The notes beneath the pieces are model-generated. The model worked only from the letters and a program-made list of their open reading frames with translations. It was not told the DNA's origin and did no database searches. Position numbers and translations under genes: made by a program. Below are positions 49,911-53,266 of a stretch of 64,000 nucleotides of DNA, one piece after another; position 1 is the first letter of the stretch, and each line of letters begins with the position of its first letter. The stretch comes from Promicromonospora sp. Populi (lineage in GTDB: Bacteria; Actinomycetota; Actinomycetes; Actinomycetales; Cellulomonadaceae), in contig NZ_CP163528.1 in NCBI RefSeq assembly GCF_041081105.1, forward strand, positions 2,914,001-2,978,000. Direction: 5' to 3'.

Positions 49911-50984
49911 ATGACCGACCGACTCCTGCCCGATGCCGAGACGATCGAGACCGTGCTCGCCTCCCGGCCGGGCGCGTGGGGTGCCGGAGCACGAGTGCTC
50001 TCGGTGCGGGACCTGTCCCCCGGGCTGAGCCGGGCGGCGGTGCTCCGGGTGAGCATCAGTGCGCCGGGCAGCCGCCCGGCCCAGTGGATCGTCAAGATCC
50101 CGAGCTGGGGCGAGCCGTCCCTCCTCGACTCGCGGGACGGGCGGCTGCACCTCCGGGAGGCCGACTTCTTCGGCAGCGACGTCCCCGGTCTGCTGCCCAG
50201 CGGCCTGGCCACACCGGCGGACCCGACCGTGATCCGGCAGAACGGCCTCGACTGGATAGTGATGCGCGACGCCGCCGCCGTCCTGCACCAGAGCTGGACT
50301 CCCGCCGCCGCGATGACCACCGCCGAGCGGATCGCGCCGCTGTTTGCCGTGGGAGCCGCGCGCGCCGGCCTGCTCGACTCCCTCTGGCTGGAGCGGGCGG
50401 GCTACGCCGCATACACCCATCACATCCGAGACGGTCACGACAACCTCGACGCGCTGGCCCATGACCCGCAGCTCAGGGCGCTGTTCACCCCTGAGCAGGT
50501 TGATGCCCTGCACACCTGCCTGGACGCCGCCGCCGTGCTGAGCGCACGCGCCGCGGAGCTGCCCACCACTCTGGTCCACGGAGACCTCCACCCGCGCAAC
50601 GCCGGCCTCGACCCGCACGGCGCGCTCCTCCTCATCGACTGGGAGCACGTGGGCGTGGGCCCCGTGGGGTTCGACCTGGGCACCTTTGTCTCGATGTACC
50701 GGGCCTTCGGCGGATCCGGCGAGCTGGACGAGCCCGCCCTGCTCGAGGTCTACGGCCGGGCCCTCAGCGACCTGGCCGGGGCCGACCTGCGCCCCGCCGT
50801 CGCCATCGGCTTCGCCATCGCTCACCTGACCTGGGGTCTGCACCTTCGCCTGGGTCCCGGCCTGACGGCGGTGCGCCAGGGCCTCCACGGCGACAGCCCC
50901 GGGGAGCTCGCCGCGCATCTCGACGATCTCCGCTCGGGCTGCCTGCGTGCCCTGTCCTGGGCGTCCGCGACGTCGTTGGCCTGA
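49911..50984 (+). CDS. Aminoglycoside-phosphotransferase-fold kinase
   Basis: 357 residues. The catalytic loop TTLVHGDLHPRNAGL and the metal site LLIDWEHVGVG are the APH/choline kinase signature. The N-lobe has the ATP lysine in WIVKIPS. The family phosphorylates small hydroxyl substrates; resistance cannot be assumed. CGAGGAGACAG precedes the ATG. The 180-nt gap before it shows no other gene. Confidence 0.88.
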   Translation: MTDRLLPDAETIETVLASRPGAWGAGARVLSVRDLSPGLSRAAVLRVSISAPGSRPAQWIVKIPSWGEPSLLDSRDGRLHLREADFFGSDVPGLLPSGLATPADPTVIRQNGLDWIVMRDAAAVLHQSWTPAAAMTTAERIAPLFAVGAARAGLLDSLWLERAGYAAYTHHIRDGHDNLDALAHDPQLRALFTPEQVDALHTCLDAAAVLSARAAELPTTLVHGDLHPRNAGLDPHGALLLIDWEHVGVGPVGFDLGTFVSMYRAFGGSGELDEPALLEVYGRALSDLAGADLRPAVAIGFAIAHLTWGLHLRLGPGLTAVRQGLHGDSPGELAAHLDDLRSGCLRALSWASATSLA

Positions 50985-50996
50985 TCGGGCCCCAAG

Positions 50997-51026
50997 TTGA
51001 CGCAGTGTTCAAGTTCGCCGTATCTT
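50997..51026 (+). promoter_or_regulatory. Promoter of the peptide-FrnE-TetR operon
   Basis: TTGACG (50997-51002) and TATCTT (51021-51026) are spaced 18 bp, a near-consensus vegetative promoter. The first ATG (51035) is 8 nt beyond the -10 box with no RBS, so the transcript is probably leaderless. Confidence 0.75.
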
Positions 51027-51027
51027 T

Positions 51028-51045
51028 CTTGACTATGAAGTCAAG
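51028..51045. promoter_or_regulatory. Palindromic operator over the start codon
   Basis: CTTGACT-ATGA-AGTCAAG has perfect 7-bp arms, and its centre contains the ATG start codon of the small gene. Position over +1 fits repression by the TetR protein encoded at the end of the operon. Confidence 0.7.
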
Positions 51046-51232
51046 TAACGCGATCTCCGCGCCGGGCCTGGTGCTCGACGCCCCGGCAGCCCTGGCGGCT
51101 TCGGCAGCAGAGGCCCCCGAGTCCGTCGACGCCGGGGCGGCCACCGCCTCCCCCACCACCGCATCGCCGTTCCAGCTCCTGCCCACGGGCGAGGCGTTCG
51201 GCGTCTGCGACCTGGACGGGGTGTGCTCCTGA
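51035..51232 (+). CDS. 65-residue Ala-rich peptide with C-terminal CDLDGVC
   Basis: The N-terminal ~45 residues are Ala/Ser/Pro-rich and probably unstructured; there is no signal peptide. The C-terminal segment is FQLLPTGEAFGVCDLDGVCS, with two Cys five residues apart at the very end. Its stop overlaps the DsbA-type start (TGATG), so translation is coupled, and it has its own promoter and operator. The layout (disordered leader, short conserved-looking Cys-containing tail, redox enzyme next door) resembles a modified-peptide precursor or a dedicated thiol substrate. No family is recognised. Confidence 0.65.
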   Translation: MKSSNAISAPGLVLDAPAALAASAAEAPESVDAGAATASPTTASPFQLLPTGEAFGVCDLDGVCS

Positions 51233-51948
51233 TGGCCGGCGAGGCATTCGGCCGGTCCGCGGACCGGCTCGTGGTCGACGTGTGGAGCGACGTGATGTGC
51301 CCGTTCTGCTACATGGGTGACACCCTCCTGGAGCAGGCGGTGGCTCAGTTCCCGCACGCCGCCGGCGTGGAGGTGCGTTATCACAGCTTCCTGCTGATGC
51401 CGGAGCTGACCGAGGACGACACCCCGGTCAACCCGGCCGAGCTGCTGTCCGCCAAGCACGGCCTCCCGCGCGAGCAGGCAGAGGCGATGAACGAGCAGGT
51501 CTCGGCCCGCGCCCGGCAGATCGGGCTGGAGTACCACCTCGACAAGGCCCAGGCCGTCGGCACCCGCACCGCGCACCAGCTCAGCCACTACGCCGCAGGC
51601 CAGGGCAAGCAGCACGAGATGGTCAAGCGGCTCTTCCAGGCGTACTTCACCGAGGGCCTCAACGTCGCGGACCGCGAGGTCCTGGGTGACCTGGCCGCCG
51701 AAGTCGGCCTGGACCGGGACGCCGCCCTAGCGGCCCTGGCCGGCGGCGAGTTCGCCGACGACGTCGAGGCGGACCTGCGGCAGGCCCGCGAGTACGGCAT
51801 CACCGGGGTGCCGTTCTTTGTGTTCGCCGGCAAGTACGCCGTCTCGGGCGCACAGCCGGTCGAGGCGTTCACGCAGGCCCTGGAGACGAGCTGGAACGAG
51901 ACCGTCGGCTCGGCCGCGACCGCCGGCGCCGCCGGGGCCGGGCGATGA
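51232..51948 (+). CDS. DsbA-family oxidoreductase, FrnE type
   Basis: 238 residues. The thioredoxin-fold active site is DVWSDVMCPFCYMG (CPFC). The helical insertion and GTRTAHQLSHYAAGQGKQHEM, GITGVPFFVFAGKYAVSGAQP (cis-Pro loop VPFF) are FrnE signatures. No signal peptide, so it acts in the cytoplasm. Translation is coupled to the peptide upstream and to the TetR gene downstream (ATGA overlap). Confidence 0.93.
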   Translation: MAGEAFGRSADRLVVDVWSDVMCPFCYMGDTLLEQAVAQFPHAAGVEVRYHSFLLMPELTEDDTPVNPAELLSAKHGLPREQAEAMNEQVSARARQIGLEYHLDKAQAVGTRTAHQLSHYAAGQGKQHEMVKRLFQAYFTEGLNVADREVLGDLAAEVGLDRDAALAALAGGEFADDVEADLRQAREYGITGVPFFVFAGKYAVSGAQPVEAFTQALETSWNETVGSAATAGAAGAGR

Positions 51949-52520
51949 GCTCGGACACCCCGCGGCTGCGCGCCGACGCGCAGCGGAACGTCGAGGGCAT
52001 CCGCCTGGCTGCCCTCGACGTCTTCCGAGCCCACGGGCTGAACAGCCCCCTCGACGAGGTCGCACGCGCCGCGGGGGTCAGCAAGGGCACCATCTACCAC
52101 CGCTTCGGGGGTCGGCAGGGGCTGATCGACGCCGTCGTCGAGGAGCTCGTGGCCGAGCGCATCAGCGGCATCATCAGCTCGGTCTCGGCCATCGACGACC
52201 CGGTCGAGCGGTTCGAGGGTTACCTGCGCGGGCTCTGGCTGCTCCAGTACGACGAGCCGGCCGCCAACGACGTCCTGCTGCGCGCACTGCCGGGCTCTGC
52301 CCCGCTGGCGGCGATGTGCGAGCACGCCGCCGAGGTCGCCGCCCGCTTCCTCGCTGACGCCCGGGCCACCGGCACGATCCGGGACGACCTGACGCCGGAG
52401 GACGTCGGCATCCTCATCTGGGAGCGCGGCATCATCGCCCGCGCCTGCGACCAGCAGCACCGCGACGGTTACATCAGGAGCTTCGAACACACCCTGCGCG
52501 GACTCCGCAGCGGTTCGTGA
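51945..52520 (+). CDS. TetR-family regulator of the FrnE operon
   Basis: 191 residues. HTH: RNVEGIRLAALDVFRAHGLNSPLDEVARAAGVSKGTIYHRFGGRQGL. It is the last gene of a three-gene coupled operon. The palindrome at 51028-51045 is the likely binding site, which would give negative autoregulation of peptide and oxidoreductase. Confidence 0.9.
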   Translation: MSSDTPRLRADAQRNVEGIRLAALDVFRAHGLNSPLDEVARAAGVSKGTIYHRFGGRQGLIDAVVEELVAERISGIISSVSAIDDPVERFEGYLRGLWLLQYDEPAANDVLLRALPGSAPLAAMCEHAAEVAARFLADARATGTIRDDLTPEDVGILIWERGIIARACDQQHRDGYIRSFEHTLRGLRSGS

Positions 52521-52564
52521 CCACGCGCGACACCCGGTTCGGACGTTCCACTACGGTGTGACGC

Positions 52565-53266
52565 ATGCAGCCTGCGACGACGGGCTCTGCCCGTCCGACA
52601 GTCGTCTTCGATGTACTCGGCACACTGGTTGACCAGGCAGGAAGCCTCGGCACTCGGGTGTCCGAGGTGACCGGGATCAAGAGCGGTGCCGCGGCATACG
52701 TAGCCCGTCGATGGCTCGAGCGCATCGCCGAGCGGGAGCGCGAGATCGTCGAGCGTCGTCGCGCGTTCGCCCCCAGTCACGAGCTGGACCGTGAGGTCCT
52801 GAACTCGCTCGTCCACGAGAACCTGCTGCCGCCCGGGTCGGCGGTCAGGCTCGCCGACGCGTCGGAGCGGCTGCTGCCGTGGCCGGACGCCGCGGCCGGC
52901 CTCGACCTCCTTAGCCGCGACCTCCCGGTGCTCGGCCTCTCGAACGCGAGCCGCCGGGTCCTGGCCGGGCTGAGTGCGGGCGGCGGCCTGCGGTGGCACC
53001 AGGTGCTCTCCGCCGAGGACGCCGGCACCTACAAGCCAGGCCGGGAGATCTACGAGCTGGCGCTGGCCAGCGCACCCGCCGCGGCGGACCCGCCCTTCAT
53101 GGTGGCGGCGCACGCCTGGGACCTGCGGGCCGCCGCCGCGGCGGGGATGCGCACCGCCTACCTGCCCCGCCCCGGCGGCGACCTGCCTCGTCCGGGTGAC
53201 GGGTTCGACCTGCACGCGATGAACCTGGTGGACCTGCACGCCCAGCTGCTCGCCCTGCCCGGCTGA
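52565..53266 (+). CDS. HAD-superfamily hydrolase, type II haloacid dehalogenase-like
   Basis: 233 residues. The nucleophile is D16 in VVFDVLGTLVD. The LGLSNAS motif II, YKPGREIYELAL (Lys, motif III) and the haloacid-dehalogenase signature VAAHAWDLRAAAAAGMRTAYLPRPG are present. It may hydrolyse 2-haloacids or act as a phosphatase. It is convergent with the WYL regulator. Confidence 0.9.
   Translation: MQPATTGSARPTVVFDVLGTLVDQAGSLGTRVSEVTGIKSGAAAYVARRWLERIAEREREIVERRRAFAPSHELDREVLNSLVHENLLPPGSAVRLADASERLLPWPDAAAGLDLLSRDLPVLGLSNASRRVLAGLSAGGGLRWHQVLSAEDAGTYKPGREIYELALASAPAAADPPFMVAAHAWDLRAAAAAGMRTAYLPRPGGDLPRPGDGFDLHAMNLVDLHAQLLALPG

What the first reader, a model, noticed from the sequence alone, without database searches (positions are those of the whole stretch)
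50997..52520. Coupled operon: Cys-tailed peptide, FrnE oxidoreductase, TetR
A 65-residue peptide ending GVCDLDGVCS is translationally coupled to a cytoplasmic DsbA-type enzyme, which is coupled to a TetR gene. A strong leaderless promoter and a perfect palindrome lie exactly at the peptide start. The peptide has the form of a precursor or dedicated thiol substrate: disordered leader and short terminal Cys motif. I know of no described system with this content.
Basis: partly seen in the sequence, partly recalled or inferred. Interest (0 to 1): 0.75.

Follow-up and report, generated by a model that had tools for sequence, protein, structure and literature searches.

The report
Redox enzyme's tail as separate peptide
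A soil bacterium makes a thiol-handling enzyme that lacks the cysteine tail seen in relatives, and a small peptide encoded just in front of it looks like that missing tail; in several other genera a similar small peptide is encoded just behind the enzyme instead.

Summary
A 65-residue peptide (51035-51232), a FrnE-type DsbA oxidoreductase (51232-51948) and a TetR regulator (51945-52520) form an overlapping operon. The peptide occurs in 13 of 13 genomes of the genus (Promicromonospora) and 0 of 46 others searched. The promoter fits a leaderless start and carries two TTGA-N8-TCAA sites, the only two in the 64 kb window.

The peptide is probably not a precursor. In Deinococcus FrnE a C-terminal CX4C tail docks on the active site of a neighbouring molecule and is proposed to regenerate it (PMC8945050). 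The 14 peptide-linked FrnE copies have only the CPFC pair and no tail. The peptide's conserved end, SPFxLLPxGEAFGVCDLDGVCS, resembles such tails.

The split recurs. Of 30 tail-less FrnE genes without an upstream peptide, 15 have a small downstream ORF ending in a FrnE-like tail by profile, and 5 more by eye; none was found behind 31 FrnE genes with their own tail or the upstream peptide.

Best reading: a regenerating redox tail supplied in trans. The link from this upstream peptide to the tails is statistical; the tail-only profile does not detect it.

The parts
50997..51026 (+). Promoter: TTGACG, 18 nt, TATCTT; -10 ends 8 nt before the ATG (fits leaderless mRNA)
   Evidence: Only promoter-like site found in 50900-52700; TTGAC[GC]-17/18-TAnnnT-7/8-ATG in 13 of 13 genus genomes
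50997..51012 (.). Putative TetR operator 1, TTGACGCAGTGTTCAA, overlaps the -35
   Evidence: TTGA-N8-TCAA in 13 of 13 genus promoters
51029..51044 (.). Putative TetR operator 2, TTGACTATGAAGTCAA, overlaps the start codon
   Evidence: 9 of 13 genus promoters; sites 1 and 2 are the only two in the 64 kb window, and 0 occur in L044, the second copy, where no tetR match was found
51035..51232 (+). 65-aa dithiol peptide, proposed trans-acting FrnE tail (variable N-terminal part, conserved C-terminal part)
51164..51229 (+). Codons of the last 22 residues SPFQLLPTGEAFGVCDLDGVCS
   Evidence: 10 of these 22 positions (P, F, L, F, G, V, C, D, G, C) invariant in 13 of 13 genus genomes
51232..51948 (+). 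frnE: DsbA-fold oxidoreductase, CPFC active site (Cys23, Cys26), no other Cys
   Evidence: PF01323; AlphaFold2 pLDDT 83.5, best PDB matches are D. radiodurans FrnE, TM 0.88; Cys census
51945..52520 (+). tetR: TetR-family regulator, last gene of the operon
   Evidence: PF00440; found in 10 of 11 Promicromonospora peptide loci

Best explanation
The operon makes a FrnE-type thiol-disulfide oxidoreductase whose C-terminal regenerating Cys tail is not part of the enzyme but is made as its own small peptide, upstream and probably translationally coupled. SHOWN: the tail is absent from this FrnE; a conserved dithiol peptide overlaps its gene in the whole genus; related tail-less FrnE genes have a small downstream ORF with a FrnE-like tail. 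INFERRED: the peptide binds FrnE through its hydrophobic PFxLLP stretch and places its CX5C pair at the CPFC active site, as the tail of a neighbouring molecule does in Deinococcus FrnE crystals; its dithiol reduces the oxidised CPFC, and the oxidised peptide is recycled by another cellular thiol system. The TetR protein represses the operon from two sites over the -35 and the start codon until an unknown signal, perhaps thiol stress, releases it.
For: 1) The 14 peptide-linked FrnE copies (13 genomes plus the second copy L032) have CPFC and no other Cys; 10 of the other 40 FrnE loci end in CX4C (e.g. AEVCGPDGCTT; count), and so does D. radiodurans FrnE (GCEDGQCAV). 2) In all drFrnE structures the tail of one molecule sits at the active site of another, with a Cys244-Cys22 disulfide in crystals grown with DTT; mutation or deletion of the tail Cys lowers NADPH/TrxR-driven DTNB reduction (review PMC8945050, section 2.4 read). 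3) A profile built only from 18 FrnE tails finds tail-like frames just downstream of 9 of 30 tail-less FrnE genes at E<0.1, but of 0 of 24 with their own tail or the upstream peptide, and in 0 of 54 reverse strands and 0 of 54 upstream stretches. 4) With a profile of tails plus downstream peptides the count is 15 of 30, and 0 of 31 genes with own tail or upstream peptide (12 of the 15 were in that profile; 8 of 15 also have E<0.05 with the tail-only profile); 5 more by eye, among them L016 with CGPDGVC, a CX5C like the window's. Of the 15, 8 have a start codon overlapping the frnE stop as ATGA, GTGA, TGATG or TAATG (the script preferred such starts where present). 5) A profile of the 20 downstream peptides, with no upstream peptide in it, scores 44 of 116 upstream-type peptides at E<1, against 2 of 116 with the pre-Cys part shuffled and 0 of 116 with the loop also shuffled; the real peptide beats its decoy in 100 of 116. 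Pre-Cys segments alone also align better to FrnE tails than to position-permuted tails: 16.3 against 14.4 (sd 0.33), 0 of 400 permutations reaching it; hhalign P 1.6e-4, probability 50%. 6) In L044, the one locus of 11 without a tetR match, both operator sites are missing too.
Against: The tail-only profile does not find the upstream peptide: 0 of 14 loci even at E<1; in the window its ORF is not among the 12 top hits shown and ranks 798 of 1106 with a re-trimmed version, which scores only 4 of 116 upstream-type peptides at E<1 (decoys 0 and 0). The window's own peptide ranks 409 of 1106 with the downstream-peptide profile (best domain 5.1 bits) and 34 of 1106 (E 19) with both together, so the link rests on other members of its family. 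The loop is CX5C, not CX4C. Mean dN/dS of the last 22 codons is 0.72, against 0.18 for 40 frnE codons: conservation is at single positions. Ten of 30 tail-less FrnE genes have no tail ORF in the stretch read behind them, so a nearby tail is not always needed. Sequences in the shuffles are related, so the significance is overstated by an unknown amount. The genome context of upstream-type peptides outside Promicromonospora could not be read. No binding or redox data exist.
Confidence: 0.68

Rival explanations
1. Independent small thiol or metal-binding protein (buffer, metal sensor or signal to TetR) that shares an operon with FrnE; the likeness to FrnE tails is convergent.
For: CX5C with acidic residues could bind metal; drFrnE is cadmium-induced (PMC8945050); the tail-only profile does not detect the peptide.
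Against: Likeness extends to the segment before the cysteines; pairing with a tail-less FrnE in 14 of 14 cases and with none of the 10 tail-bearing loci.
Confidence: 0.16
2. Regulatory leader ORF: a leaderless, coupled upstream ORF whose translation, perhaps sensing cysteine supply, sets frnE expression, as proposed for Cys-rich leaderless ORFs of mycobacteria.
For: Leaderless-type start, stop overlapping the next start, two Cys codons near the end; precedent in PMC4633059 (passages read).
Against: No Cys cluster: the two Cys are five residues apart; non-Cys residues PF, FGV and DG are invariant in the genus and FGVCDLDG recurs in an Actinomyces-named relative (P0100); the downstream tail ORFs elsewhere cannot be leaders of frnE.
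Confidence: 0.08
3. Precursor of a modified peptide product (RiPP-like) with a variable leader and a conserved Cys core, oxidised by FrnE.
For: Variable N-terminal part and constant C-terminal part; UniRef names of single members such as 'Mycofactocin' (P0015) or 'FxLD family lantipep...' (P0046, P0062).
Against: 0 Pfam and 0 NCBIfam matches at E<=1; only frnE and tetR stay beside it. As a general rule (recalled) RiPP leaders are kept and cores vary; here it is the reverse.
Confidence: 0.06

Closest known systems
D. radiodurans FrnE (DR_0659; PDB 5cnw, 5co3, 5coh, 5cp1, 5xwh)
   Same: Same fold and 45-47% identity; CPxC active site; the tail acts between molecules in the crystals
   Different: There the CX4C tail is part of the enzyme; here it is absent from FrnE and a separate CX5C peptide is made
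S. coelicolor SCO1869 (PDB 3gl5), FrnE-like DsbA-family protein
   Same: Same fold, 40% identity
   Different: Has its own C-terminal EACGPDG stretch; the alignment shown ends before a second Cys
Tail-less FrnE of S. roseofulvus and D. maricopensis
   Same: FrnE without the C-terminal Cys pair; a different regeneration was suggested for them (PMC8945050)
   Different: The review section read mentions no trans tail; their neighbours were not examined here
Cys-rich leaderless upstream ORFs of mycobacteria
   Same: Leaderless small ORF ahead of another gene (PMC4633059, passages)
   Different: Cys clusters and a proposed attenuation role; here a conserved protein motif

Membership tests
FrnE (DsbA family, cytoplasmic) | DsbA-like thioredoxin fold | tested here: met
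   PF01323 5.7e-46; AlphaFold2 model matches drFrnE, TM 0.88
FrnE (DsbA family, cytoplasmic) | CXXC active site near the N-terminus, CP(W/F)C | tested here: met
   CPFC in 14 of 14 peptide-linked copies
FrnE (DsbA family, cytoplasmic) | Cytoplasmic, no signal peptide | not tested
   No signal-peptide program was run; the start MAGEAFGRSADRL shows no hydrophobic stretch by eye
FrnE with regenerating tail | C-terminal CX4C in the same chain | tested here: not met
   0 of 14 peptide-linked copies
FrnE with regenerating tail | Tail supplied by a neighbouring ORF | tested here: inconclusive
   Resemblance and co-occurrence; tail-only profile negative for the upstream peptide; function untested
RiPP precursor | Known precursor family | tested here: not met
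   0 Pfam and 0 NCBIfam matches at E<=1
RiPP precursor | Maturation, protease or export gene conserved beside it | tested here: not met
   11 window genes traced in 11 loci: constant are peptide and frnE (11) and tetR (10); APH 7, HAD 7, others fewer. Genes of the other loci that are absent from the window were listed for 4 loci only and not annotated
Cysteine attenuator leader | Cluster of Cys codons at the end of the ORF | tested here: not met
   Two Cys codons with five codons between them
TetR autoregulated operon | Inverted repeats over the promoter | tested here: met
   TTGA-N8-TCAA sites
TetR autoregulated operon | Binding of this TetR to the repeats | not testable with these tools
   Needs a gel-shift or footprint

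The most novel reading that the evidence does not exclude
Detached redox tails are a general, overlooked design of the FrnE family: the enzyme and a diffusible dithiol peptide are made from neighbouring, often overlapping genes, the peptide shuttles electrons between FrnE and another thiol system, and the pair exists in at least two orders (peptide upstream in Promicromonospora, downstream in other genera of its family and order) and once, on a Paracoccus plasmid, as a tail-like stretch fused to a glutathione S-transferase-family protein.
Probability: 0.4. Interest if true: 0.85.

Novelty: new variant of a known kind. Interest (0 to 1): 0.72.

Why it matters
It would answer how some tail-less FrnE enzymes are regenerated; the review read here only suggests that their mechanism differs (PMC8945050). 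It turns a set of small, family-less ORFs of about 45-85 residues into a testable protein family, and gives a case of a catalytic redox arm supplied as a separate gene product, which would let the cell set electron flow by peptide dose.

Tried and rejected
Direct homology test: the FrnE-tail profile against 1106 window ORFs did not pick out the peptide. Mean dN/dS as proof of tail selection: 0.72, not low. Pattern for the V-type tail in 394 class genomes: only this genome. E/N-type with one mismatch in 335 genomes: 4 other matches; the peptide profile over their loci gave at best E 0.052 for L072, matching only GVCDMDG inside a 244-residue frame. A4 profile in 394 genomes: own genome plus L046, whose translation shows no such peptide. 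A5 profile in 345 genomes: own plus four matches at E 0.004-0.009 inside frames of 225-767 residues, not taken as peptides. Viral contigs and plasmids: no peptide. FrnE sister branch L047, L048: no peptide, no tail. Other operator sites in the own genome: 13 places within 3 mismatches of the consensus against 4 for the reversed control; the only other place with two mismatches lacks an intact GTCAAG arm, so no regulon member is claimed. The shared GEAFG of peptide and FrnE start is left unexplained.

Full report
What is there. The peptide ORF 51035-51232, frnE 51232-51948 and tetR 51945-52520 overlap as TGATG and ATGA. frnE is a DsbA-family protein (PF01323) and tetR a TetR_N protein. The peptide has no Pfam or NCBIfam match at E<=1.

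Distribution. A profile of the peptide finds it in 13 of 59 genomes: 13 of 13 of the genus, 0 of 46 others. It ends TGATG at frnE in 13 of 13. In a database of 5.8 billion proteins one profile gives 106 proteins at E<=10, and a second adds ten more. Some carry names from outside the genus, such as an Actinomyces MAG (P0100) and Glycomyces harbinensis (P0111). Their gene context could not be read.

Gene neighbourhood. In 11 ten-kb loci the peptide and frnE match in 11, tetR in 10, and the other eight window genes tested in at most 7. The constant unit is peptide-frnE-tetR.

Promoter and operators. TTGAC[G/C], 17-18 nt, TAnnnT and 7-8 nt to the ATG are kept in 13 of 13 genomes. TTGA-N8-TCAA lies over the -35 in 13 of 13 and over the ATG in 9 of 13; the four without the second site are L008-L011. 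In the 64 kb window the motif occurs only at these two places; in the 11 relatives' loci it occurs only at the promoter, and not at all in L044, where no tetR match was found. The frame after the L032 frnE shows a short tetR-like remnant (read by eye). N-terminal residues MxSS/MxST of many family members would fit an operator embedded in the gene start; outside the genus this is inference from protein letters.

The missing tail. A review describes D. radiodurans FrnE with an N-terminal CXXC and a C-terminal CX4C tail that docks on the active site of another molecule and is proposed to regenerate it; S. roseofulvus and D. maricopensis FrnE lack it (PMC8945050, section 2.4; the primary paper I looked up was not held). 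Here the 14 peptide-linked FrnE copies have only CPFC. In the 54-row FrnE tree they are one side of one branch, support 98/98; the nearest rows, L047 and L048, belong to another family and have neither tail nor peptide. The AlphaFold2 model (pLDDT 83.5) matches drFrnE best (5co3, TM 0.88, 45% identity), with residues 228-238 under pLDDT 50.

Tails in trans elsewhere. A peptide profile run over 6931 ORFs of the fetched loci turned up small ORFs directly behind tail-less FrnE genes (L027, L091). A systematic look over 64 FrnE loci gave: own tail 17, upstream peptide 14, downstream tail ORF 15, none 18. By kinship 14 of the 15 are in the window's own family (one, L092, in its own genus) and one, L019, in another family of the order. 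Of the 18, five have a downstream tail ORF when the frames are read by eye (L016, L022, L025, L085, L102); L103 (a Paracoccus plasmid) has a tail-like stretch at the N-terminus of a GST-family protein that overlaps frnE; and L107 has a Cys pair farther from its end. That leaves 11, one of which, L106, has a broken frame. The profile used for the 15 included 12 of them; with FrnE tails alone 8 of 15 have E<0.05. The control uses that tail-only profile on 54 loci: at E<0.1, 9 of 30 tail-less loci downstream, 0 of 14 upstream-peptide loci, 0 of 10 tail-bearing loci, and 0 of 54 on the reverse strand or upstream.

Is the upstream peptide such a tail? For: pre-Cys similarity beyond permuted controls; hhalign P 1.6e-4, though at 50% probability; 44 of 116 peptides at E<1 with the downstream-peptide profile against 2 and 0 of 116 decoys; and pairing with a tail-less FrnE in 14 of 14. 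Against: the tail-only profile finds 0 of 14 loci and 4 of 116 peptides at E<1; the window's own peptide ranks 409 of 1106 ORFs with the downstream profile and 34 of 1106, E 19, with both; and the loop has one residue more. L016 (CGPDGVC) shows that a downstream tail can also be CX5C. The rows are related to each other, so the shuffles overstate significance to an unknown degree. For these reasons I set the odds at 0.68, slightly under my first estimate of 0.7.

Mechanism. Likely steps: TetR repression, release by an unknown signal, coupled synthesis of peptide and FrnE, docking of the peptide at CPFC, dithiol exchange, recycling of the peptide by another thiol system. Only the gene arrangement and the sequence likeness are shown; the rest is inferred from drFrnE.

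Literature. Searches for FrnE with RiPP, disulfide, cadmium, C-terminal tail or operon terms, for DsbA family with split or small-protein terms, and for Promicromonospora with DsbA listed no report of a separately encoded FrnE tail. Apart from the papers cited above and passages of PMC10715225, only listings were seen, in three cases a part of the papers found (12 of 17, 10 of 25, 10 of 22), and the library lacks most subscription papers.

Noticed in passing
L014, L015, L018-L021, L023, L026, L027, L083, L084, L090-L093 (downstream of frnE): Small ORFs of 48-83 residues ending in FrnE-like tails (e.g. CVDGVCALPE) behind 15 tail-less FrnE genes, 8 of them overlapping the frnE stop by one or four bases; six of them tested, no Pfam or NCBIfam match at E<=0.1.
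   Followed up: yes
L103:1245-1812: Paracoccus plasmid: a tail-like MSGPLIPLGETGATCDGGLCEMP stretch forms the N-terminus of a GST-family protein whose gene overlaps frnE.
   Followed up: partly
L032 (downstream of its frnE) and L044: Second peptide-frnE copy of P. thailandica: different peptide N-terminus, no operator sites, and only a short tetR-like remnant.
   Followed up: partly
window 51188-51202 and 51238-51252: GGCGAGGC(G/A)TTCGGC occurs at the peptide tail and at the frnE start (14 of 15 bases alike), giving GEAFG in both proteins; possible duplication or shared docking motif.
   Followed up: no
L092 (second FrnE of a Promicromonospora, genome G002): The same genus also holds a FrnE paralogue with a downstream tail ORF ending FCDDDHCEIPTH, so both gene orders occur in one genus.
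   Followed up: no
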